Assembly (NCBI GenBank): GCA_017447815.1
Contig: JAFSMS010000064.1
Span: forward strand, 1 to 32,853
Direction of reading: 5' to 3'
Origin: Bacteroidales bacterium
GTDB taxonomy: Bacteria > Bacteroidota > Bacteroidia > Bacteroidales > UBA932
Length of the DNA: 32,853 nucleotides
This document shows, in pieces, positions 2,101-23,349 of the stretch. The first letter of the stretch is position 1. Every line of letters starts with the position of its first letter. The position numbers were made by a program, and so were the translations under genes. The notes beneath the pieces were generated by a model, which saw only the letters and a list, made by a program, of their open reading frames with translations, did not search any database and was not told where the DNA came from.

Positions 2101-2278
2101 TTATCTATGATGATATCTATTACCTATTATATACCAGTTCACAATCCCTCACAATACGCTTGAATGTGCTGCTCTTCGATTCTGGTAGTCCAGATAGTAG
2201 GCGTGCTCCCAGACGTCGAAGGTCAAAATCGGTTTAGAACCGTGCGCCGCAGGATTATCGGCAATGATTTTAATATCA
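2101..2278 (-). pseudogene. Decayed 3' fragment of an Fe/Mn superoxide dismutase gene
   Basis: Minus-strand translation of 2262-2101 gives [20 protein letters not shown], then [15 protein letters not shown], an in-frame TGA, and a tail resembling the last 15 residues of the dismutase. The intact gene at 10965-11543 encodes [20 protein letters not shown] at the same place. Over the best 83 bases I count about 17 differences, so the fragment is a diverged relative and not a recent copy. It keeps the metal-ligand motif DVWEHAYY but has lost everything before it. The frame survives apart from one stop. The fragment begins at the stop codon of the SocA-like gene and ends five bases before the DUF4062 start, so the accessory genes seem to have been spliced around or into a former sod gene. 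Confidence 0.85.
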
Positions 2279-2878: not shown

Positions 2879-2932
2879 AGATTTCTCGACTTCGCTCGAA
2901 ATGACAGTATTGATTAGATTCTTCGCGTGATT
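2879..2932. repeat. Degenerate interspersed element: one half-unit plus a second partial
   Basis: The half-unit at 2879-2907 reads TTCTCGACTTCGCTCGAAAT in its core and ends ATGACAG, a variant of the element seen elsewhere in the window. A second fragment, AGATTCTTCGCGTGATT, lies at 2916-2932. The copy sits between hicA (stop at 2948) and the SocA-like gene (start at 2860). Confidence 0.7.
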
Positions 2933-2947
2933 AAAAAAGGATACTAA

Positions 2948-3184
2948 CTATTTGATCTCATCCAACTGCGCATCAAACTCTTCCTTTGATATCCCAATAG
3001 TCCGAATATTGTTTTTTATAATATCTTCAGGGATTGGTTCCACGTGGTTCTGAAATACTACGTTTCTTAACATTCCTTCCTTGAACCACATCTCATGTCC
3101 ACCCTTTGTCCTCACTTGTTCCAGTCCTAAAGCCTTCAAAATCTTCCGAAATCTGGCAACTGTAATGTTGCTATACTTCCCCAT
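2948..3184 (-). CDS. hicA: HicA-type mRNA interferase toxin, copy 1
   Basis: The 78-residue basic protein has the YcfA/HicA double-stranded-RNA-binding-like fold signature. It shows [20 protein letters not shown] with the conserved catalytic His (His30), then MWFKEG and NNIRTIGIS. HicA toxins cleave mRNA and tmRNA. It starts two bases after its antitoxin gene, so antitoxin precedes toxin, the reverse of the Escherichia coli order but common for YcfA pairs. A second hicA at 5024-5260 encodes a protein with only three substitutions (T26S, A73K and Q74K by my alignment), although about 41 of 237 bases differ. That pattern means most changes are synonymous and the toxin is under purifying selection. 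Confidence 0.85.
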   Translation of the reverse strand: MGKYSNITVARFRKILKALGLEQVRTKGGHEMWFKEGMLRNVVFQNHVEPIPEDIIKNNIRTIGISKEEFDAQLDEIK

Positions 3185-3186
3185 AA

Positions 3187-3552
3187 TCAGGCAATGGCAT
3201 AATTAACCGGAACGGTGCGTTTTTCAAAATCGCTGGAAAAAATGTCCTGAAGCTGCTGATTGTCTTCAATTCCCCATGCTAACGGAGATAAGAACTCAAC
3301 CTTTCTCGCCTCCTTAATCCAGCCACGACTCTCCAGATATGTCTTAAGAGTATTATGCTGAATTGCCGTATCGAAGAAATCTTCAGCAACAACCTCAAAT
3401 GAAGATTTGGCATCATCTACAGTCTTGCCGTAACCCATTAAATCCAATGCGGGAGCATAAGCAATCTTAAAGCCGTCGTTCTCGTAGATAAAGACATCCA
3501 GCATGGCCTCAATATGCCCTTTGGACACCTTAATATAATTTCTTTTATTCAT
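3187..3552 (-). CDS. hicB: HicB-type antitoxin, copy 1
   Basis: The 121-residue protein carries the HicB partial RNase H-like fold. The typical core is DVFIYENDGFKIAYAPALDL followed by MGYGKTVDDAKSSF (about residues 19-52). HicB binds and blocks HicA and usually represses its own operon. The C-terminal part (about 75-121) shows no helix-turn-helix or ribbon motif that I can name, so how it would bind DNA is unclear. It lies two bases upstream of hicA. A copy at 5263-5628 differs at 16 of 121 residues. The start ATG at 3550-3552 is 23 bases downstream of an interspersed half-unit. Confidence 0.8.
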   Translation of the reverse strand: MNKRNYIKVSKGHIEAMLDVFIYENDGFKIAYAPALDLMGYGKTVDDAKSSFEVVAEDFFDTAIQHNTLKTYLESRGWIKEARKVEFLSPLAWGIEDNQQLQDIFSSDFEKRTVPVNYAIA

Positions 3553-3575: not shown

Positions 3576-3603
3576 AGATTCTTCGCTTTGCTCAGAATGA
3601 CAC
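3576..3603. repeat. Interspersed element, half-unit
   Basis: The 28-base copy begins AGATTCTTCGCTTTGCTCAG and ends AATGACAC. Within it ATTCT and AGAAT can pair as a small hairpin. It sits between the 157-residue unknown gene (stop at 3611) and hicB copy 1 (start at 3552). Confidence 0.85.
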
Positions 3604-3610
3604 AAGCACT

Positions 3611-4084
3611 CTAGCGACTCCCTGGCATATCACCACTCCAGCCGTGTCCCAAGTCCCAGTGCTCATCGTAAACAAATTCAAAGTACGGAAGTGAAAACTC
3701 TTTCTCTATGAGGTCTGTTAATTCATCCAGAACAGGTTCGGCCCAATGCCCCACCAGAACAATGAATTTGTCAACATTCCAGGCAACACGTCCACGTGGT
3801 ACCTGAGTATAGTCTCCCTTGAACTTTGTTTCAATATGCTTAGCCTGAGCCTTGAAATATTCTTTCGCCCAAATATTACGGTGCAGTTTGGGATAGTTTA
3901 TAAACGGCACACCTTTCTCTGCGGCCTCCTCAACATCACGCGGTGAAACCTCTTTCTTATGAACTCCAAAGAAGCAATGCTCCTGAAGGTCATACCAGAA
4001 GATTCCCACGCATGGCATTTGCTCGTCAAAGGTCTTCATATCGGCCATTTGAGCGTTATGCTCTTTATTTGAGAGTTGTGTCAT
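3611..4084 (-). CDS. Conserved-looking hypothetical protein, 157 residues
   Basis: I do not recognise this gene. The product is soluble and rich in aromatic residues and histidine. Blocks that look conserved are MPCVGIFWYDLQEHCFFGVH (from residue 23), FINYPKLHRNIWAKEYFKAQ, YTQVPRGRVAW and the C-terminal YDEHWDLGHGW. There is no signal peptide or membrane segment. The first ATG at 4082-4084 is followed by internal ATGs, so translation could start up to about 20 codons later. It lies 53 bases downstream of rfbA and 58 bases upstream of hicB copy 1, inside the toxin-antitoxin region. The base composition is intermediate to AT-rich. It could be an accessory factor or a toxin partner; nothing in the sequence decides this. 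Confidence 0.65.
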   Translation of the reverse strand: MTQLSNKEHNAQMADMKTFDEQMPCVGIFWYDLQEHCFFGVHKKEVSPRDVEEAAEKGVPFINYPKLHRNIWAKEYFKAQAKHIETKFKGDYTQVPRGRVAWNVDKFIVLVGHWAEPVLDELTDLIEKEFSLPYFEFVYDEHWDLGHGWSGDMPGSR

Positions 4085-4114
4085 ATCCGTTTACTCGTAT
4101 TTCAATAGCGACCT

Positions 4115-4131
4115 CATGCTTGCAAAGCATG
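4115..4131 (-). other. Perfect hairpin resembling a tRNA-Ala(UGC) anticodon arm
   Basis: On the minus strand CATGCTTTGCAAGCATG forms a seven-base stem. It is followed by AGGTC, as in the anticodon arm and variable loop of tRNA-Ala with anticodon TGC. No proper D-stem, T-stem or acceptor stem surrounds it, so this is not a working tRNA. It may be an rfbA transcript hairpin, a tRNA-derived remnant such as an old attachment site, or coincidence. It has no following U-tract, so it is not a classic terminator. Confidence 0.4.
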
Positions 4132-4137
4132 TGTTCT

Positions 4138-5016
4138 CTATTCTGTATCTGCTAACCTCAAAAGGTACTGCCCATACTGGTTCTTCGCCATCGGCTGGGC
4201 TACTTCGCGAAGCTTATCGGCACTTATCCAGCCTTGCTGGTAGGCGATTTCCTCCAGGCAAGCGACCTTAAGTCCTTGCCTTTTTTCTATGGTTTCAATG
4301 TAGATGGAGGCCTCGGCAAGGGAATCGTGGGTACCGGTGTCAAGCCAGGCGAAGCCTCGGCCAAAGACTTGCACTTTGAGTTCGCCGGCATTGAGGAATT
4401 CCTGGTTCACGGTGGTGATTTCCAGTTCTCCCCTCGCGCTAGGCTTGATATGCTTTGCCACCTCTACCACCTTGTTGGGATAGAAGTAGAGGCCCACCAC
4501 GGCGTAATTGCTCTTCGGCTCCTTTGGCTTTTCCTCAATGCTCAGGCAGTTGCCTTTCTTGTCAAATGCGGCCACGCCATAGCGCTGAGGGTCACTGACC
4601 CAGTAGCCAAATACGGTGGCTTTCTGGTTTTCCTCGGCATCCTTCACGGCCTCGCGAAGCAGTCCGGTGAAGCCGGTCCCGTGGAAGATATTGTCCCCCA
4701 GCACCAGGCACACGCTATCATTGCCGATAAACTTCTCACCAATGATGAACGCCTGCGCAAGGCCGTCCGGGCTCGGCTGCTCCGCGTATTCGAAGTGCAC
4801 GCCGTAGTCTGAGCCATCCCCCAGCAGCCGCCGGAACCCGGGGAGGTCATACGGCGTACTGATGATAAGGATATCGCGGATCCCCGCCAGCATCAGCGCG
4901 CTGATGGGATAATACACCATCGGCTTGTCATAGATGGGCAGGAGTTGCTTACTCACTCCCTTGGTTATCGGATATAGCCGGGTGCCGGATCCCCCGGCCA
5001 GGACGATTCCTTTCAT
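4138..5016 (-). CDS. rfbA: Glucose-1-phosphate thymidylyltransferase
   Basis: RmlA/RfbA joins dTTP and glucose-1-phosphate to make dTDP-glucose, the first step to dTDP-rhamnose. The 292 residues match family length. The nucleotide-binding signature [20 protein letters not shown] is at residues 8-27, followed by [24 protein letters not shown] and the [12 protein letters not shown] block also fit. The next enzyme, rfbB, is 6.9 kb away; rfbC and rfbD are not in the window, so the classical rfb operon is broken up. The gene starts seven bases after hicA copy 2 and is probably co-transcribed with that hicBA module. Its GC-richer composition contrasts with the AT-rich genes on both sides, which suggests toxin-antitoxin modules were inserted around a resident gene. 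Confidence 0.95.
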
Positions 5017-5023
5017 AAAAGAG

Positions 5024-5260
5024 TTATTTTATCTCATCAAGTTTTTTATCAAACTCTTCCTTCGATATTCCTATAGTCCGGATATTATTCTTTATAATAT
5101 CCTCCGGTATTGGCTCAACATGGTTTTGGAACACAACGTTCCTTAACATTCCCTCTTTAAACCACATTTCATGGCCGCCCTTCGATCTCACTTGCTCCAG
5201 TCCTAAAGCCTTTAATATCTTCCGGAATCTGGCAACTGTAATGTTGCTGTACTTTCCCAT
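5024..5260 (-). CDS. hicA: HicA-type mRNA interferase toxin, copy 2
   Basis: This 78-residue toxin is nearly identical in protein to the copy at 2948-3184 and keeps the catalytic His in KGGHEMW. It starts two bases after hicB copy 2 and ends seven bases before the rfbA start codon. Because the two toxins differ at only three residues, each antitoxin may neutralise both. The stop codon is TAA here and TAG in copy 1. The high share of silent differences argues for an old duplication, or two independent acquisitions of related modules, rather than a recent local copy. Confidence 0.85.
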
Positions 5261-5262
5261 AA

Positions 5263-5628
5263 TCAGGCAAAGGCGTAATTAACCGGAACAGTGCGTTTCT
5301 CAAAGTCGCTGGAAAAAATGTCCTGAAGTAACTGATTCCCTTCTATTCCCCAAACTAACGGAGACAAGAACTCAATCTTCCTCGACTCCTTAATCCAGCC
5401 ATGGAGCTCAAGGTACTCTTTAAGTGTTTTATGCTGAACCGCTGTTTCAAAGAAGTCTTCTGCAACAACCACGAATGAAGATTTGGCGTCATCTACAGTC
5501 CTGCCATAACCCATCAAATCCAATGAAGGAGCATAAGCAATCTTGAAGCCGTCGTTCTCGTAGATAAAAACGTCCAGCATCGCCTCAATATGGCCTTTAG
5601 ACACCTTGATATAATTTCTTTTTTTCAT
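5263..5628 (-). CDS. hicB: HicB-type antitoxin, copy 2
   Basis: This 121-residue antitoxin has the same layout as copy 1: an N-terminal HicB-like core with DVFIYENDGFKIAYAPSLDL and a C-terminal region ending FEKRTVPVNYAFA. By my alignment 16 residues differ from copy 1, mostly between positions 53 and 100. That is faster change than in the partner toxin. A truncated interspersed half-unit ends 42 bases upstream of the ATG. The bases just after it form TAGTTTTG on the minus strand, which fits the TAnnTTTG promoter box, although I see no clear -33 element. Confidence 0.8.
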   Translation of the reverse strand: MKKRNYIKVSKGHIEAMLDVFIYENDGFKIAYAPSLDLMGYGRTVDDAKSSFVVVAEDFFETAVQHKTLKEYLELHGWIKESRKIEFLSPLVWGIEGNQLLQDIFSSDFEKRTVPVNYAFA

Positions 5629-5649
5629 TGGTTATATGTTCTTCTTTTT

Positions 5650-5670
5650 AGTTTCGCTCAGAATGACAAA
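5650..5670. repeat. Interspersed element, truncated half-unit
   Basis: The copy reads AGTTTCGCTCAGAATGACAA plus one A and lacks the usual AGATTCTTCGC start. Its end and the flanking bases (5667-5674) spell TAGTTTTG on the minus strand, a possible -7 box for hicB copy 2. Confidence 0.75.
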
Positions 5671-5688
5671 ACTATTATCTCACCTGAT

Positions 5689-6171
5689 TCATTTAACTTC
5701 ATAACTCTCTACAAACCTCAACGCCTTTATTACCTTTGGAGTATGAAAGGATAGTTGATTGTAGGTTTTATACGCTTTCAGTTGAGCAATGGCGGCGGGG
5801 GCATCAAGGACACCGCTTTCGTAAAGGTTCACAACTGTAAAGACCTTGTCGTTGGCTACGGGGCCAAACACCAGATCATAGTCATGCATAACGCCTTTCC
5901 TACTGCTAACGACAAAGTTAAGCCATGCTTCATCCGGTCCGTTAAATTCCCTAATCTTGAGGGAAGGATCAGCCAAAATAGCATCGTCTATTTCATATAC
6001 CGACACTGTCCTTTTTCCCGTCTGTGCCCTGTCCAGTTTAATGGAAGTCCAATGTTCGGCCTGTTCTTTCTGAGTTGTAGTATAGAAACCTTTCCCGAAG
6101 TCGGTCTTCTGTCTTCCCCGTCTTAAATTAGGTTTCTTGACCTCTACATTTGATCCGTGATATAACCTCAT
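5689..6171 (-). CDS. DUF3990 protein, probable ADP-ribosyltransferase-fold toxin
   Basis: The 160-residue product begins MRLYHGSNVEVKKPNLRRGR and continues KTDFGKGFYTTTQKEQAEHW, the defining pattern of DUF3990. This family is distantly related to ADP-ribosyltransferases; the YHGS and GFYTTT segments correspond to NAD-binding strands of that fold. The central block AWLNFVVSSRKG is also typical, followed by DLVFGPVANDKVFTVVNLY. Its ATG overlaps the stop of the upstream DUF3791 gene by four bases, a tight coupling expected of a toxin-antitoxin pair. Target and exact chemistry are unknown. The C-terminus (QLSFHTPKVIKALRFVESYE) fits the family's terminal helix. The family call is strong; the toxin role is inferred. 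Confidence 0.8.
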   Translation of the reverse strand: MRLYHGSNVEVKKPNLRRGRQKTDFGKGFYTTTQKEQAEHWTSIKLDRAQTGKRTVSVYEIDDAILADPSLKIREFNGPDEAWLNFVVSSRKGVMHDYDLVFGPVANDKVFTVVNLYESGVLDAPAAIAQLKAYKTYNQLSFHTPKVIKALRFVESYEVK

Positions 6172-6596
6172 CTTCTCTTCCTCCTCTGAATAAAACGGTC
6201 AATCTCATCTATCACATATCCAGTTCCTTGCGTGTGCAGAAGATCATAATGCTCTACAAGGAACTCATCAGCCTTATAACGTTTGAAAAGGGCTAGTGCC
6301 TGAAGACCTGTAAGCCCCTTGGCTAGTGCGTATTTTTCAAGGCAATACGTATAAAACTCAAACTCTGCCGACGTAACAGGGATTTGATCCGATTTCCTTG
6401 CATCTTCAAACTCATCATACAGCGCTTCCGTGCTCAAATACCACCACTTTGCGCCCTCGTCATAAAGCTTGTCATACATGGGATTGGTATAAACATATAC
6501 AAGAGCCTCTTCCAGAAAAATATGCTTTCTCTGGGCGACATATTCCGCAAGACGTGAAATCTTGATCGGAACTATCTGTTCTTCATATACTCCCAT
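6168..6596 (-). CDS. DUF3791 protein, likely partner of the DUF3990 toxin
   Basis: The 142-residue protein has two parts. The N-terminal 65 residues (KISRLAEYVAQRKHIFLEEA, then WWYLSTEALYDEFE) look like a small helical domain often found in neighbouring genes of such loci. The C-terminal part (about 75-135) matches DUF3791: EFEFYTYCLEKYALAKGLTG, then QALALFKRYKADEFLVEHYD and LLHTQG. In many genomes DUF3791 is encoded beside DUF3990, and here the two genes overlap by four bases. Its position upstream fits an antitoxin or chaperone-like partner. The start ATG is 14 bases downstream of an interspersed half-unit. Function is inferred from context. Confidence 0.75.
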   Translation of the reverse strand: MGVYEEQIVPIKISRLAEYVAQRKHIFLEEALVYVYTNPMYDKLYDEGAKWWYLSTEALYDEFEDARKSDQIPVTSAEFEFYTYCLEKYALAKGLTGLQALALFKRYKADEFLVEHYDLLHTQGTGYVIDEIDRFIQRRKRR

Positions 6597-6610
6597 GATA
6601 CTATACTTGC

Positions 6611-6639
6611 AGATTCTTCGCTTCGCTCAGAATGACAAA
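6611..6639. repeat. Interspersed element, half-unit
   Basis: The copy begins AGATTCTTCGCTTCGCTCAG and ends AATGACAAA. It fills nearly the whole gap between the ugd stop codon (6640-6642) and the DUF3791 start codon (6594-6596). Confidence 0.88.
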
Positions 6640-7965
6640 CTAATCCCTTTTAAAAATATCCCTCGTATAGACTTTCTCCTGCACGTCGTCCAGGGCCGCG
6701 TCGTAGCGGTTGGCGATGATGGCGTCGGCCTGGGCCTTGAAGGTGGCGAGGTCGTTCACCACGCGGGAGCCGAAGAACGTGCTGCCGTCTTCCAGCGTGG
6801 GCTCGTACACAATCACCTTGGCGCCCTTGGCTTTGATGCGTTTCATGATGCCCTGGATGGCGCTCTGGCGGAAGTTGTCGGAGTTGGATTTCATGGTAAG
6901 CCGATAAACGCCGACCACCACTTCCCTCTCCTTCACAGCGTCGTATGCGCTTGAGGCTGTGTAGTATCCGGCCTTTTCCAGCACCCGGTCGGCGATGTAA
7001 TCCTTGCGCGTGCGGTTGCTGTCCACAATGGCCTTGATCAGGTTCTCCGGCACATCGTTGAAGTTGGCCAGGAGCTGCTTCGTATCCTTCGGCAGGCAGT
7101 AGCCGCCATACCCGAAGGAAGGGTTGTTATAATGTGTGCCGATACGGGGATCCAGTCCCACGCCCTCGATAATGGACTGCGTGTCAAGACCCTTCATCTC
7201 GGCATAAGTGTCCAGTTCATTGAAGAAACTGACCCGCAGAGCAAGGTAGGTATTGGCAAAAAGTTTCACAGCCTCCGCCTCCGTGGATCCCATGAACAGC
7301 ACCGGCACATCCTCCTTGATGGCGCCTTCCTTGATGATGGACGCGAAGGTGTGAGCGGCCTGCGCTAGAGATTCTTCGCTGCGCTCAGAATGACAATTGT
7401 CATCCTGAGGAGCGTTAGCGACGAAGGATCTGTTATCATCAAATCCCACAATAATACGGCTCGGATACAGGTTGTCGTACAGGGCCTTGGATTCACGAAG
7501 GAACTCCGGGGCGAAGATAATCTTGGGGACAACCACCTTGAAGGTTCCGTCGGCCTGACGCTCGCGATAGCTGAACTTCTCACGGACACTCTTGGTGTAG
7601 CCCACGGGAATGGTGGACTTAATCACCATCACCGCATCCGGATTCACTTCCAGCACCAGTTCTATCACCTCCTCCACGTGGGACGTGTCGAAGAAATTCT
7701 TCTTGGAATCGTAGTTGGTGGGGGCGGCGATGACCACGAAATCCGCATCGGCATAGGCCTTGCGTCCGTCCAGCGTCGCCACCAGATTCAGCGGCTTCTC
7801 CGCCAGATACTTCTCTATATATTCGTCCTGAATGGGCGAAACCTTCCTGTTAATCTTCTCTACCTTCTCCGGAATCACGTCCACGGCCGTCACCTGATGG
7901 TGTTGGGCCAGAAGGGTGGCAATGGAAAGGCCGACGTATCCGGTTCCTGCAACTGCTATTTTCAT
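6640..7965 (-). CDS. ugd: UDP-glucose 6-dehydrogenase with an in-frame repeat insertion
   Basis: Ugd oxidises UDP-glucose twice with NAD+ to give UDP-glucuronate. The Rossmann start [20 protein letters not shown], the [10 protein letters not shown] block (115-124), FAPEFLRES (151-159) and the catalytic Cys290 in [15 protein letters not shown] are all present. The protein has 441 residues, longer than the roughly 390-420 of close family members I know. The extra length is explained by residues 179-199 ([20 protein letters not shown] plus S), a translated 63-base copy of the interspersed element. The insert follows [10 protein letters not shown], a region between the NAD-binding domain and the central helix where a loop might be tolerated. 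All catalytic motifs lie outside it, so activity may survive. The downstream neighbour is the DUF3791/3990 pair; the upstream one is the epimerase. Confidence 0.95.
7369..7431. repeat. Full 63-bp palindromic element inserted in frame in ugd
   Basis: The left arm (7369-7396) starts AGATTCTTCGCTGCGCTCAG and the right arm (7397-7431) ends GCGACGAAGGATCT. The arms are imperfect inverted repeats meeting at CAATTG. Its length is exactly 21 codons, and no stop occurs in the ugd frame. The left arm matches the half-units found between genes; the right arm carries about seven extra bases. Confidence 0.92.
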
Positions 7966-7980
7966 ATTTAATTGCTTTTA

Positions 7981-8007
7981 TATTCTGCGCTTCGCTCAGA
8001 ATGACAA
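7981..8007. repeat. Interspersed element, half-unit
   Basis: The copy TATTCTGCGCTTCGCTCAGA ending ATGACAA occupies the gap between the epimerase stop codon (8009-8011) and the ugd start (7963-7965). Confidence 0.85.
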
Positions 8008-10964: not shown

Positions 10965-11543
10965 CTACTTGGTATATCTTTCTTCCACCACTTTCCAGTC
11001 GATGATTTGCCAGAGGGCCTTGAGGTGGGCGGCGCGGAGGTTCTGGTGGTCCAGGTAGTAGGCGTGTTCCCAGACGTCGAAGGTGAGGATGGGCCTGAGA
11101 CCGTGGGCCACGGGATTGTCGGCCCCGGGGCACTGGAGGATGCAGAGTTCGCCGTCGGCCTTGGCGGCCAGCCATACCCAGCCGCTGCCGAAAAGGCCTG
11201 TTCCCTTGGCTTCAAACTCGGCCTGGAAGGCTTCCAGGGTGCCCCACTGCTGTTGGATTCGGGCCAGCAGACGGCCGGTCGGGGCCTGCGAGGACGGGAC
11301 GGGAGCGAACTGCAGGAAGTACAGGTTGTGGTTCAGGATTTGTCCGGCGTTGTTGAAAACCGGGCCGGCAGGGGCGCCGCTTATGATTTCTTCCAGGGAT
11401 TTCCCCTCGAAAGGCGTTCCGGCCACCAGGCTGTTCAGGGTGTTTACATAGCCGTTAAGATGCTTTCCGTGATGGAAGGACAAGGTACGGTCGCTGATGA
11501 CAGGCTCCAGCGAAGCGTAAGGGAGGGTGATGAGGGTGAACAT
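10965..11543 (-). CDS. sodB: Superoxide dismutase, Fe/Mn family
   Basis: The 192-residue protein converts superoxide to oxygen and hydrogen peroxide in the cytoplasm. Metal ligands are visible at the expected places: His24 (SFHHGKH), His72 (LNHNLYF), Asp156 and His160 ([10 protein letters not shown]). FNNAGQILNHNLYF and GSGWVWLA are family blocks. Bacteroidota enzymes of this type often accept either iron or manganese, so the metal is not certain. The start MFTLITLPYA lacks a signal peptide. Its stop lies nine bases before the kinase gene, so dismutase and uronate genes are probably one transcript. Upstream is a structured region with a TATATTTG box. A diverged 3' fragment of a second sod gene lies at 2101-2278. 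Confidence 0.95.
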   Translation of the reverse strand: MFTLITLPYASLEPVISDRTLSFHHGKHLNGYVNTLNSLVAGTPFEGKSLEEIISGAPAGPVFNNAGQILNHNLYFLQFAPVPSSQAPTGRLLARIQQQWGTLEAFQAEFEAKGTGLFGSGWVWLAAKADGELCILQCPGADNPVAHGLRPILTFDVWEHAYYLDHQNLRAAHLKALWQIIDWKVVEERYTK

Positions 11544-20092: not shown

Positions 20093-20382
20093 TACTTGGC
20101 AAACTTCTTCTCCTTGGCGCGGACAATCTTTTCCTTGAGGGCGTCAGCGGCGTCCGTGACGGCCTCTTCGAAGGTGCGGGCCTGACGCTCGACAATCAGG
20201 TCTTCACCCGGGATGTGGGTCTGGACCTTCACGCACTTGTTTTCCGCGTCCGGAAGGAGGCTGAGGGTGACGTCGATATCACCCATGTTGTCGAAGAACT
20301 TCTCTACTTTTCCAACTTTCTTGTCAATGAAGTCCAGCAGCTTCTCGTCTGCATCGAACTTGAGGGACTTTACGTTAATCAT
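20092..20382 (-). CDS. hpf: Ribosome hibernation-promoting factor (short form)
   Basis: The 96-residue protein is a YfiA/HPF-type factor: beta-alpha-beta-beta-beta-alpha with SLKFDADEKLLDFIDKKVGK, VEKFFDNMGDIDVTLSLLPD and the ending FEEAVTDAADALKEKI. It binds the small ribosomal subunit in the tRNA and mRNA channel during stress. It lacks the C-terminal dimerisation domain of long HPF, so it would resemble the short forms. It overlaps xerC by eight bases and holA by one. Pairing of hpf with xerC is common in Bacteroidota. Confidence 0.92.
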   Translation of the reverse strand: MINVKSLKFDADEKLLDFIDKKVGKVEKFFDNMGDIDVTLSLLPDAENKCVKVQTHIPGEDLIVERQARTFEEAVTDAADALKEKIVRAKEKKFAK

Positions 20383-21349
20383 GACTTTCTTCGTTTTTTG
20401 CCCTGGGGTGGGCGTTCATGTATTGTTGCCTGAGCCGTTCCACGGAATTGTGGGTATATACCTGCGTGGCGGCTAAACTGCTGTGGCCCAGCATCTCTTT
20501 GATGGCATTCAGGTCTGCTCCCTCGTTGAGAAGGGCTGTCGCAAGCGAGTGCCTGAGCACGTGGGGGGATTTCCTCCCGGTGATGCCGCTTCGGCCTTGC
20601 AGTTCTGCTTTCACGGCCCTGTCCACGAAGACGGGATAGAGGGGGGTCCCTTTTTCCGTCACCAGGAGCGGGGCGCTGGCGGGCATTTCTCCGACCATGA
20701 AACGAACTGTTTGTAAATATAATGAAATTTCTTGAATCAGCGAAGGAATCAGCGGAATTTCGCGCATTTTGTCTCCTTTTCCTCTCACGCGGAGGGTTTG
20801 CCGGCCTTCATCGACGCTCTGCCGCTGCAGGGCGATGAGTTCGGCCCGGCGGATGCCCGTTCCGTATAACAGGCTCACGATGAGGCGTCTGAGGCGGCGG
20901 TTGTACAGTTCCCGGGCCAGTTTTCCCTGCGGGTCGCTGCTCAGGAGCACCGACAGTTCATCGGCCGATTCGGCGTGCTCGCTCTCCTCCAGATAGCCTT
21001 CCAGGGCGCCCTCGGTGATGTATTCGGGGAGGCGCTTTTCCATTTTGGGGCGCTTGACCGTCTTCACGGGATTGGAAGCGAGTTGCCCTTCTTTCACGAG
21101 GTAGCGGCAGAACCCGCTGAGCGCGCTCATGTGAAGGTGTACCGTCCGCGGCTTCAGGCCCGTGTCAATCAGGTGCCCTTCATATTCCCGGATGCGCGAT
21201 GGGATGAGTTGGCCGATGAGGCCGCCGTCGGCCTCGCCGGAGGCGCCGGCCCAGTCGGCAAAGCCCGAGAGGGCTTCCCGGTACAAGGAAACCGTCCGGG
21301 GCGAATACCGCCGGATGTCCTGCAGATAGGTGATGTACCTTTCAATCAT
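20375..21349 (-). CDS. xerC: Tyrosine recombinase XerC
   Basis: The 324-residue recombinase has the SAM-like N-terminal domain (MIERYITYLQDIRRYSPRTV) and a complete catalytic set: Arg in GTGIRRAEL, Lys in RGKGDKMREIPL, HxxR in SPHVLRHSLATALL, His in LGHSSLAATQ and the nucleophile Tyr in QVYTHNS. XerC/D enzymes resolve chromosome dimers at dif. It is the first gene of the xerC-hpf-holA unit, as usual for the housekeeping enzyme. No phage or integrative-element genes adjoin it, so an integrase role is unlikely. It starts five bases after a full interspersed palindrome that also covers the end of cca. Confidence 0.92.
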   Translation of the reverse strand: MIERYITYLQDIRRYSPRTVSLYREALSGFADWAGASGEADGGLIGQLIPSRIREYEGHLIDTGLKPRTVHLHMSALSGFCRYLVKEGQLASNPVKTVKRPKMEKRLPEYITEGALEGYLEESEHAESADELSVLLSSDPQGKLARELYNRRLRRLIVSLLYGTGIRRAELIALQRQSVDEGRQTLRVRGKGDKMREIPLIPSLIQEISLYLQTVRFMVGEMPASAPLLVTEKGTPLYPVFVDRAVKAELQGRSGITGRKSPHVLRHSLATALLNEGADLNAIKEMLGHSSLAATQVYTHNSVERLRQQYMNAHPRAKNEESHD

Positions 21350-21353
21350 CGTT

Positions 21354-21420
21354 TTTTCGCTTCGCTCAGAATGACATGGCCTGTGTCATTCTGAGGCAGG
21401 TTCACCTGCCGAAGAATCTG
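21354..21420. repeat. Full palindromic element overlapping the end of cca
   Basis: Left arm TTTTTCGCTTCGCTCAGAAT GACA and right arm TGTCATTCTGAGGCAGGTTC followed by ACCTGCCGAAGAATCTG form an imperfect inverted repeat. The right arm contains its own CAGGT/ACCTG stem. It differs in the right arm from the copy in ugd. The right arm encodes the last 11 residues and the stop of cca. Confidence 0.88.
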
Positions 21421-22951
21421 CTTTCCGGCCGCCCCCCTCTTTCGGCCGAAGGCCATACACCTCGGCGGCCTGCCGGCGCATGTAGGCATCGGCATCCGCG
21501 AAGGTGTAGGGGATTTCGCCGTCCAGGATGGCGTTTTTCACCATTTCCTTGAGCTGGCCGATGGTGTTGCAAGGCTCGATCCCGAACAGGTCCATGATGT
21601 AGTCTCCGCTGATGGGATTTTTCCAGTTGCGGATGCTGTCCTTGGCCTCCACCTCCGCCATCTTGGCCTTCACGAGTTCGAAGTTGCGCCTGAGGCGCGT
21701 CACCTTCGCGGGGTTCTTGGAGGTGATGTCGGCATTGCAGAGGAGCATGAGGTCGTCGATATCGTTGCCGGCGTCGAAAAGGAGGCGGCGCACGGCGCTG
21801 TCGGTGACCTCGTCGTCCACCAGGGCGATGGGCCGCAGGTGCAGGTTCACCAGTTTCTGGACGTATTTCATCTTCTCGTTCAGGGGCATCTTGAGCCGGC
21901 CGAAAATCTTGGGCACCAACCGGGCGCCGGTGACTTCGTGGCCGTGGAAGGTCCAGCCCTGTCCGGGGGCGAAGCGCTTGGAGACGGGTTTGCCCACATC
22001 GTGCAGGAGGGCGGCCCAGCGGAGCCAGAGGTTCGGCTCGGTGCGGGGCGTGGCGTTGCCGTCGGCATCGTAATCGTTCAGGCGGCCTTCGGCAATGGCT
22101 TCTTTCTCAAAGCCGATGACGTTTTCCACCACCTGGAGGGTATGGGTGAAGTTCTCCTTGTGGCCTTTGCCATCGACCGTTTCCACGCCTTTGAGACGGC
22201 TCACTTCGGGGAGGAACTGCGGCAGGAGGCCGGTTTCCTCCATGAGTTCGAAGGCCATGGCGGGATGGTCCGTGAGGAGCATCTTGTTGAGTTCTTCCAC
22301 GATGCGTTCCTGCGAGAGAATCTGCAGGCGCGGGGCCATGGCTTTCATGGCCCGGAGGCTTTCGGGGACGATTTGGAAGCGGAGATCGCCGGTGGTCAGG
22401 CGGGCGGCGAAGCGGATGGCCCGGAGCATGCGCAGAGGGTCGTCGGAGTAGGTCTGCTCCGGCTCCAGCGGGGTGCGGATGATGCCGGCCGCAAGGTCGC
22501 GGATGCCGCCGAAGGGGTCCACGAGGGCGCCGTAGTCATCGGCCTGGAGGGAGAAGGCCATGGCGTTGATGGTGAAGTCCCGCCGGAGTTGGTCTTCCTC
22601 CAGGGTGCCGTCTTCCACGATGGGCTTGCGGGAATCGCGGTGGTAACTCTCCTTGCGGGCGCCCACGAACTCCACCTCCATGCCGTGATACCGCAGCATG
22701 GCCGTGCCGAAGTTCTTGAACACGCTTACCTTGGAATGGCATTTGGCGGCCACGGCCTCGGCCAGCGCAATGCCGGCGTGCTCCGTTCCGGGCTTGCTCT
22801 CCACCACGATGTCGATATCCTTGTTCGGGACGCCCAGGAAGCAGTCCCGCACATATCCGCCTATCACAAAAGCCCTGACGCCCAGTTCCCCGACCGTCTC
22901 ACTCACCAGTCTGAAGACCGGATGGTCCAGATACGCTTCTACTCTTGTCAT
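21386..22951 (-). CDS. cca: CCA-adding tRNA nucleotidyltransferase with HD domain
   Basis: The enzyme adds CCA to tRNA 3' ends. FVIGGYVRDCFLGVPNKDID carries the GG and DxD metal motifs (Asp45, Asp47); RRDFTINAMAFSL and DDPLRMLRAIRFAAR are the class II nucleotide-binding blocks. An HD domain follows with WAALLHDVGKP. The ATG at 22949-22951 is chosen because its ATGA overlaps the stop of the upstream gene; this gives 521 residues. The last residues, ADSSAGEPASE, come from the right arm of an interspersed palindrome, which also supplies the TGA. Conserved family sequence ends before this tail, near RQAAEVYGLRPKEGG. Confidence 0.94.
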   Translation of the reverse strand: MTRVEAYLDHPVFRLVSETVGELGVRAFVIGGYVRDCFLGVPNKDIDIVVESKPGTEHAGIALAEAVAAKCHSKVSVFKNFGTAMLRYHGMEVEFVGARKESYHRDSRKPIVEDGTLEEDQLRRDFTINAMAFSLQADDYGALVDPFGGIRDLAAGIIRTPLEPEQTYSDDPLRMLRAIRFAARLTTGDLRFQIVPESLRAMKAMAPRLQILSQERIVEELNKMLLTDHPAMAFELMEETGLLPQFLPEVSRLKGVETVDGKGHKENFTHTLQVVENVIGFEKEAIAEGRLNDYDADGNATPRTEPNLWLRWAALLHDVGKPVSKRFAPGQGWTFHGHEVTGARLVPKIFGRLKMPLNEKMKYVQKLVNLHLRPIALVDDEVTDSAVRRLLFDAGNDIDDLMLLCNADITSKNPAKVTRLRRNFELVKAKMAEVEAKDSIRNWKNPISGDYIMDLFGIEPCNTIGQLKEMVKNAILDGEIPYTFADADAYMRRQAAEVYGLRPKEGGGRKADSSAGEPASE

Positions 22952-23349
22952 ATCATCTCTTCCCACAAAGGGGCCTTGTCCATGAACTGCCAGCCATCGG
23001 CCTGCCTCCGGAAGATAAAGGTCTTGGTCCCGTTGGTAATCACTATGTACTTCACTTCCAACTCATTGCAGTACCTTATAGCCTGGTCCACCACCTCCTG
23101 GTCCAGCGTCACTTCGGGACGCTTGCATTCCACCAGCATCAGGGGCCTGGCCATGCGGTCGTACACCACGATATCGGCCCGATACTCCTTGGCACCATGC
23201 TTGAAGGCCACTTCCGACCCCATCATGTGCTCGGGCACGTGCATTCCCTCATGCAGCACGGAAATAAACCATTGCCGTACTGCCTCCTCGGGCGTATTCC
23301 GCACACTCTTGCGCCGCAGCGGATCCCAGATATATTCGCTTGAAACCAT
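22948..23349 (-). CDS. HsdR_N-domain small protein (PD-(D/E)xK fold)
   Basis: Starting at the ATG at 23347-23349, the 133-residue protein matches the N-terminal nuclease-fold domain of type I restriction R subunits, present here alone. NTPEEAVRQWFISVLHEG is followed by the core YRADIVVYDRMARPLMLVEC and KRPE, which has the spaced Asp and Glu-x-Lys of PD-(D/E)xK nucleases. YCNELEVKYIVITNGTKTFI completes the fold. The frame is open for 52 codons further upstream, but that part overlaps the APH-like gene and is not family-like. No HsdM, HsdS or helicase domain is near. Such stand-alone proteins recur beside DNA-replication or tRNA genes in Bacteroidota. It is translationally coupled to cca. Function unknown. 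Confidence 0.82.
   Translation of the reverse strand: MVSSEYIWDPLRRKSVRNTPEEAVRQWFISVLHEGMHVPEHMMGSEVAFKHGAKEYRADIVVYDRMARPLMLVECKRPEVTLDQEVVDQAIRYCNELEVKYIVITNGTKTFIFRRQADGWQFMDKAPLWEEMI

What the first reader, a model, noticed from the sequence alone, without database searches (positions are those of the whole stretch)
7369..7431. A 63-bp palindromic element lies in frame inside UDP-glucose dehydrogenase
The insert is exactly 21 codons, has no stop in the ugd frame, and is an imperfect inverted repeat meeting at CAATTG. Its left arm matches half-units seen between genes. It adds residues 179-199 to an otherwise intact enzyme. In Rickettsia, palindromic elements (RPE) insert in frame into genes in the same way; I do not know of a description in Bacteroidota.
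Basis: partly seen in the sequence, partly recalled or inferred. Interest (0 to 1): 0.78.

Follow-up and report, generated by a model that had tools for sequence, protein, structure and literature searches.

The report
Mobile DNA repeats colonise enzyme loop
A short palindromic DNA repeat sits inside the gene for a sugar-processing enzyme and is read as an extra loop of protein; in related gut and rumen bacteria the same loop has been filled again and again by different repeats, showing how repetitive DNA can keep rebuilding a tolerant spot in a working enzyme.

Summary
A 63-bp imperfect palindrome lies in frame in an otherwise intact ugd (UDP-glucose 6-dehydrogenase). It is a head-to-head dimer of a repeat whose core occurs 57 times in this genome (control 2). 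The closest relative read (97% aa identity) lacks it: 1263 nt against 1323, a net gain of 20 codons.

The larger finding: the same loop is a recurrent landing place. In the ugd clade that holds the window, 26 of 79 distinct sequences carry a palindromic or tagged-repeat insert there, of about ten sequence types by my grouping, scattered over the tree (19 gain/loss changes by parsimony). Insert-bearing genes stay under purifying selection: one filled/empty pair differs at 2 of 397 residues at dS 0.55.

It is not peculiar to ugd. The genome has such repeats in frame in nine genes with family matches (MurB, MutL, Mfd, PolA, MetG and others), and MurB shows the same recurrence.

Several element types fit, and the window's is a variant of, the CGTC-tagged REP superfamily, which already includes Rickettsia RPE-4 and RPE-6 and is known inside genes. 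The kind is known; repeated colonisation of one enzyme loop by many repeat families in Bacteroidales appears to be a new variant.

The parts
6640..7965 (-). ugd, UDP-glucose 6-dehydrogenase, 441 aa, carrying the insert
   Evidence: Pfam domains PF03721, PF00984, PF03720; NCBIfam PRK15057 hit, 539.6 bits, below its cut-off of 757, and NDP-sugDHase 310 bits, above its cut-off of 189.8; solved homologues 3PHL, 1DLI
7369..7431 (-). in-frame palindromic insert, residues 179-199 ([21 protein letters not shown]); head-to-head dimer of two unequal REP-like units
   Evidence: absent from near relatives L155 and L075
7369..7394 (-). 26-nt unit, tag TGTC, 9-position stem ATTCTGAGC/GCGAAGAAT with 2 mismatches, 3-nt loop
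7399..7431 (+). 33-nt unit GTCATCCTGAGGAGCGTTAGCGACGAAGGATCT in the opposite orientation
   Evidence: stem seen in the part that ran before it failed, not passed by the filter
6614..6637 (-). same repeat, 2 bp downstream of the ugd stop codon
7983..8006 (-). same repeat, 17 bp upstream of the ugd start
3579..3602 (-). same repeat, between ORFs
5645..5668 (-). same repeat, degraded second arm, between ORFs
2883..2906 (-). B-type repeat (GTCATTTCGAGCGAAGTCGAGAAAT); the only match in this genome to the B search pattern
21353..21419 (.). another pair of A-type units, tags facing each other (21365 on -, 21385 on +), after ORF 20375-21349; the second unit overlaps the 3' end of ORF 21386-22966; outer end approximate

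Best explanation
The insert is a recent in-frame copy of a genomic palindromic repeat (a head-to-head dimer of TGTC-tagged REP-like units) in a loop of Ugd that tolerates length change, between the NAD-binding and central domains. It is translated as about 20 extra residues and is tolerated rather than needed. Repeats arrive in many places; copies in frame and in permissive loops survive purifying selection, so the loop fills, empties and refills with repeats of the lineage. Shown: in-frame insert, empty sites in close relatives, recurrence with different elements, open frames, purifying selection on insert-bearing genes, interspersed copies for several types. Inferred: translation of the insert, surface exposure, near-neutrality, and mobilisation as single-stranded hairpin DNA by a transposase acting in trans (three Y1/RAYT-like genes exist, not linked to the searched repeat cores).
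For: Empty/filled neighbours: window against L155, 390 of 397 residues equal outside the loop, dS 0.27, dN/dS 0.042; L032 (84-nt insert) against L171 (empty), 395 of 397 equal, dS 0.55, dN/dS 0.008, with a clean gap and no visible target duplication. Recurrence: 26 of 79 distinct sequences in the window's ugd clade carry an insert, in 21 separate all-insert clades; 19 presence/absence changes by parsimony, 24 with types as states. Restriction to the loop: among 219 ugd ORFs all 10 A-core matches, 3 of 4 B-core matches, the one N match and 16 of 27 matches of the degenerate C/E core lie in it. Long loops of this clade are palindromic against other long loops (median z -2.32 vs 0.11; 15 of 26 vs 2 of 79 below -2; p = 3.5e-6). 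Type and genome: five A carriers hold 52-106 A matches, 22 other genomes 0-57 (p = 0.0004); four B carriers 1-44, 23 others 0-18 (p = 0.014). Generality: 16 of 55 own-genome core sites lie in frame in nine genes with family matches; in MurB 13 of 46 genomes read have repeats in one or more of three loop regions. Four of six readings of the A unit are open and all four are seen in ORFs (the full ILRFAQND only in an ORF without a family match), which fits incidental peptides.
Against: The type-abundance link is not significant for the C/D/E group (p = 0.07; 0.10 after subtracting the control), and some non-carriers are rich in A (G270 57, G308 33). Of four B carriers, G304 has one match. One filled/empty pair, L188 against L248, has dN/dS 0.25 at dS 0.10, far above the others (0.008-0.081). 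The G-type palindrome of G084 is found only in ugd itself, so it is not shown to be an interspersed repeat; F has only 2-3 matches per carrier; H, P and A2 types were not counted genome-wide by their own patterns. In one search, 11 of 26 long loops are not below z -2 and seven are above 0, most of the single-unit ones among them. Many inner nodes of the tree have low support, so the number of changes is approximate. No expression, structure or kinetic data; exposure of the loop was not computed. The MurB sample is not random (20 of 50 loci were picked, mostly for split or partial matches).
Confidence: 0.82

Rival explanations
1. Landing pad: the DNA at this point of ugd is a preferred target for the repeats' mobilising machinery, so recurrence reflects targeting more than tolerance.
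For: All 10 A-core matches in 219 ugd ORFs lie in this one loop; inserts of several types follow the same codons, TAyGAyGA; five of six A carriers have 3-10 further A copies within about 1.1 kb of ugd, suggesting local spread.
Against: Palindromes of unrelated sequence (F, G, H types) land at the same point; MurB, PolA, MutL and others have inserts too, and I saw no common target, though none was searched for systematically; the five C-type loci have no C-core match in the flanks read.
Confidence: 0.1
2. Exaptation: the extra loop has been recruited to tune Ugd (oligomer contacts, allostery, membrane or partner binding), and selection favours long loops, which repeats happen to supply.
For: Many other Bacteroidales Ugd have a native longer loop at the same point (mostly 29-34 residues, PK..EENxAI type), so extra length can be useful or harmless there.
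Against: Peptides differ in sequence, frame, orientation and length (loops of 19-53 residues) and close relatives do without; 51 of 79 clade members have no insert.
Confidence: 0.06
3. Not a mobile insert: the loop is a native fast-evolving segment or an assembly artefact that resembles a repeat by chance.
For: The window's genome and most relatives are draft assemblies, many of them metagenome-derived; the loop varies in length in all Ugd read.
Against: 57 copies of the core against 2 in the control; inserts recur in many separate genomes and in paired relatives with clean gaps; palindromy against control loops p = 3.5e-6.
Confidence: 0.01
4. Translational bypass: the hairpin in the mRNA is skipped by the ribosome, so the peptide is never made.
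For: The segment can fold into a strong hairpin.
Against: The insert-bearing ugd frames read are open and in frame, and the listed ugd matches show no internal stop, which bypass would not require.
Confidence: 0.01

Closest known systems
CGTC-tagged REPs (Di Nocera et al. 2013, PMC3733652; abstract, named sections and passages read)
   Same: CGTC or TGTC tag, stem starting with AT, head-to-head dimers and heterodimers, short tail, intragenic copies, no linked transposase; C, D and E inserts have the 8-bp stem and mostly a 4-5-nt loop; the paper lists Bacteroidetes among the hosts.
   Different: The tail here is mostly CTC, not CCA; the A unit of the window has a 9-position stem with 2 mismatches and a 3-nt loop. 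The paper reports one case of different REPs at about the same site (recB of two Xanthomonas species); here one loop needs 19 gain/loss changes in one clade.
Rickettsia palindromic elements (RPE; known here through passages of PMC2229807, PMC10969869 and PMC3733652; the original papers were not read)
   Same: Palindromes in frame in conserved protein genes; one carrier enzyme (guanylate kinase) reported translated and active.
   Different: The RPEs of 105-150 bp are described as carrying a conserved peptide; here the window's units are 26 and 33 nt, several readings are used, and the host is a Bacteroidales lineage.
RAYT / REPtron elements (REP-associated tyrosine transposases)
   Same: Three Y1/HUH-like proteins in the genome match the RAYT model (NF047646, E 5e-13 to 2e-5).
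   Different: All three are below the curated cut-off of 80 bits and none has the searched A or C/E cores within its locus of about 3.1 kb.

Membership tests
CGTC-tagged REP superfamily | CGTC (or TGTC/CCTC) unpaired tag at one end | tested here: met
   Window unit TGTC; C, D, E inserts CGTC
CGTC-tagged REP superfamily | 8-9-bp stem beginning with AT | tested here: inconclusive
   Met without mismatch by L158, L211, L056, L033 and by one of the two units each in L160 and L035 (the other has one mismatch); the window's A unit has 9 positions with 2 mismatches; B-type units did not pass the stem filter of that script
CGTC-tagged REP superfamily | 4-5-nt loop | tested here: inconclusive
   Met in most C, D, E units (6 nt in one unit each of L158 and L211); the window's A unit has 3 nt
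CGTC-tagged REP superfamily | 3-bp tail, mostly CCA | tested here: inconclusive
   A tail is there but mostly reads CTC, otherwise CT and another base
CGTC-tagged REP superfamily | Head-to-head dimers predominant | tested here: inconclusive
   The window insert, L032, L160, L158, L211 and L035 have the two tags facing each other; many other copies in the genome are singletons or tandem
CGTC-tagged REP superfamily | Dispersed in many copies | tested here: met
   57 cores in the own genome; 52 matches to a 24-nt pattern with up to 2 mismatches
Rickettsia palindromic element (RPE) | In-frame insertion in conserved genes | tested here: met
   Nine genes with family matches
Rickettsia palindromic element (RPE) | Sequence homology to a described RPE family | not tested
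   No RPE sequences were fetched; no membership is claimed
RAYT-mobilised REP | Repeat flanks its own RAYT gene | tested here: not met
   No A or C/E core in the three Y1-gene loci of about 3.1 kb; other cores were not searched there

The most novel reading that the evidence does not exclude
In this Bacteroidales lineage, permissive loops of core enzymes (Ugd, MurB and probably others) are standing docking sites through which unrelated palindromic repeat families continually cycle, so loop length and sequence are re-drawn from the genome's repeat pool faster than by point mutation: a repeat-driven engine of protein loop evolution, possibly helped by preferred targeting of these points.
Probability: 0.25. 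Interest if true: 0.82.

Novelty: new variant of a known kind. Interest (0 to 1): 0.64.

Why it matters
The papers seen here describe repeats inside genes mostly as single insertions per site, best known from Rickettsia. Here a natural experiment with many replicates shows the same loop of a named enzyme filled by different repeats while the rest of the protein hardly changes. That makes an open question, whether repeat insertions in proteins are merely tolerated or are raw material for new loops, testable with ordinary purified enzymes and natural filled/empty pairs. It also warns that peptides such as CHSERSEES in these genomes are repeat-derived and can mislead annotation and domain analysis.

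Tried and rejected
Bypass, artefact and native-loop readings were considered and set aside (see rivals). Repeat clustering beside ugd as the sole cause was tested and is seen mainly in A carriers. The stem script failed part-way and was rerun with changed scoring. Shuffled tree labels: the insert pattern is nearly as scattered as random (observed 19 changes, shuffle mean 22.0, fraction at or below observed 0.064), so clade inheritance is weak. A search for the repeat's letters in print found 0 papers; searches gave no listing that, by title or abstract start, describes recurrent occupation of one loop by several repeat families. The library holds only open-licence papers, and of those listed I opened three, each in part.

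Rows set aside: 11 degenerate C/E cores elsewhere in ugd (-145 to -89 relative to the loop) and one B 10-mer at -188 in L215 were taken as native coding matches because they are isolated; not examined further. In MurB the hits in L293, L315 and the N-terminal ones in L296/L329 were treated the same way. Two clade members (L082, L247) are unclassified and were counted as without insert. Three loci (L205, L249, L254) gave no readable ugd frame; 24 others lacked the first anchor and were read by eye or with a looser anchor. The loop finder cut L188 inside its insert, so L188 is not among the 26 long loops and part of its insert stayed in the tree alignment; L082 is among the 26. The 79 comparison loops are those with P as second residue, mostly native long loops, but L229 and L247 fall among them. 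Types were assigned by eye.

Full report
What is there. Window 6640-7965 (minus strand) encodes a 441-residue UDP-glucose 6-dehydrogenase. At 7369-7431 lies a 63-nt imperfect palindrome, two repeat units of 26 and 33 nt whose GTCAT tags meet at CAATTG. It folds as single-stranded DNA with z = -4.06. Its core occurs 57 times in the 2.51-Mb, 118-contig genome (86% complete), against 2 for the reversed control. Copies also sit 2 bp after the ugd stop and 17 bp before its start.

Is it an insertion? Yes. The closest relative read, L155 (G270), and L075 lack it. Window and L155 share 390 of 397 residues outside the loop, dS 0.27, dN/dS 0.042. Gene lengths are 1323 and 1263 nt, so the net gain is 20 codons although the element is 63 nt. 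A cleaner pair is G129 (L032, 84-nt insert) and G290 (L171, empty): 395 of 397 residues equal, dS 0.55, dN/dS 0.008, with a single clean gap and no visible target duplication. Further filled/empty pairs give 0.029-0.081, and one, L188 against L248, 0.25 at dS 0.10. The enzyme with the insert is thus, as a rule, still under selection as an enzyme.

The same loop in relatives. Of 222 loci, 219 gave a readable frame; some genomes appear in both collections. In the clade that holds the window most loops have 11-14 residues (for example YDEPALEEAAHT). Others carry, at the same point, elements of many sequences; the letters are my own grouping by eye: A ([13 protein letters not shown]: window, L032, L076, L166, L167, L175), A2 (L198), B (VISSEVEKS or CHFDRAKRVEKS: L174, L214, L034; mixed in L156), C (VGHD...TGNL: L160, L083, L158/L080, L211, L035), D (HSRLDRES: L056), E (VMPAKAGI: L033/L081), P (PELVEG: L173), F (AT-rich hairpin: L172, L234, and in opposite orientation L188), G (long GTAGAGGGTACT palindrome: L064, L077) and H (AGCGAAGGGA...TCCCTTCGCT: L159/L079, L186). 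Four carriers (G051, G102, G114, G034) belong to two other genera of the family.

How often. On a tree of 205 distinct Ugd built without the loop, the clade has 79 tips: 26 with a typed insert, 51 without and 2 unclassified. Inserts fall in 21 separate all-insert clades; parsimony needs 19 presence/absence changes, 24 with types as states. Many inner nodes are weakly supported, so these numbers are approximate. Shuffled labels need 22.0 on average (fraction at or below 19: 0.064), so the pattern has little phylogenetic memory. Long loops of this clade are palindromic compared with 79 other long loops (median z -2.32 against 0.11; 15 of 26 against 2 of 79 below -2; Mann-Whitney p = 3.5e-6); 11 of the 26 are not below -2, most single-unit inserts among them.

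Are the inserts genomic repeats? For A, five carriers hold 52-106 matches, 22 other genomes 0-57 (p = 0.0004). For B, four carriers hold 1-44, 23 others 0-18 (p = 0.014). For C/D/E the two richest carriers have 161 and 166 matches (controls 17 and 26), but over all six carriers the link is not significant (p = 0.07) (counts include the ugd copy). F occurs in 3 of 10 genomes searched, the three carriers, 2-3 matches each. G is found in G084 only in ugd itself: a palindrome, but not shown to be interspersed. H, P and A2 were not counted with patterns of their own.

Not only ugd. Of 55 distinct own-genome core sites read (57 matches, two lost in my de-duplication), 16 lie in frame in nine genes with family matches: Ugd, MurB, an NtrC-type regulator, MutL, Mfd, MetG, PolA, AtpB (near its N-terminus) and an iron-sulphur protein (Ugd). 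The other 39 were not individually assigned. The A unit is open in four of six readings ([35 protein letters not shown]) and all four can be seen in these ORFs, the full ILRFAQND only in an ORF without a family match. MurB of the genus (87 of 101 genomes matched) was read at 50 loci, 46 genomes: 30 best matches plus 20 picked mostly for split or partial matches. In 13 of the 46 a tagged repeat lies in one or more of three loop regions, of types A, B, C/E, a GTCATTCCGAG type and a GTCATTGCGA type. This is not a random sample.

Mechanism. The most likely account is arrival of repeat DNA at many points, survival where the frame is kept and the loop tolerates it, and turnover. What moves the repeats is unknown. 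[quoted passage not shown]

Comparison with what is known. Di Nocera et al. 2013 (PMC3733652; abstract, sections 6, 14, 15, first part of 17 and passages read) define CGTC REPs by tag, 8-9-bp stem starting AT, 4-5-nt loop, 3-bp tail, mainly head-to-head dimers and no associated transposase. They list Bacteroidetes among the hosts, report REPs inside genes in several species, identify R. conorii RPE-4 and RPE-6 with CGTC families, and note different REPs at about the same site in recB of two Xanthomonas species. My C, D and E inserts fit stem and mostly loop; A is a mismatch-bearing variant; tails are mostly CTC. Reviews PMC2229807 and PMC10969869 (passages only) describe RPEs in frame in Rickettsia genes and an active RPE-bearing guanylate kinase. 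So the kind is known. What I found no listing of is recurrent occupation of one enzyme loop by many repeat families in Bacteroidales.

Noticed in passing
L259 2577-3815 (own genome MurB) and L286-L335: MurB carries repeats in frame at two points in the own genome, and 13 of 46 genomes read (own included) have one in up to three loop regions: a second recurrent host like ugd.
   Followed up: partly
window 3579-8006; L032, L166, L167, L175 flanks: A-type repeats cluster around ugd in A carriers (3-10 further copies within about 1.1 kb in five of six; L076 none), far denser than the genome average; suggests short-range spread.
   Followed up: partly
L061, L062, L063: Three proteins of about 300 aa with weak Y1/REP-associated tyrosine transposase similarity, without the searched A or C/E repeat cores in their loci.
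   Followed up: partly
window 2949-3248 and 5025-5324: A 300-nt direct duplication (85%) overlapping two 121-aa ORFs (3187-3552, 5263-5628) without a Pfam match, each with an A-type repeat just upstream.
   Followed up: partly
window 2165-2262: 98 nt resembling part of the ORF at 10965-11543 (77%); the motif looks like superoxide dismutase (recalled), perhaps a gene remnant.
   Followed up: no
window 5689-6596 and 2276-2860: A DUF3990/DUF3791 pair and a SocA/Panacea-type antitoxin domain gene near the sugar-nucleotide genes.
   Followed up: no
L094: Loop SDPVPELVERART, sister to L173 (PSVPELVEGL), looks like a shrunken remnant of the same insert.
   Followed up: no
L036-L053 and others: Other Bacteroidales Ugd have a native longer loop (mostly 29-34 residues, PK...EENxAI) at the same point.
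   Followed up: partly
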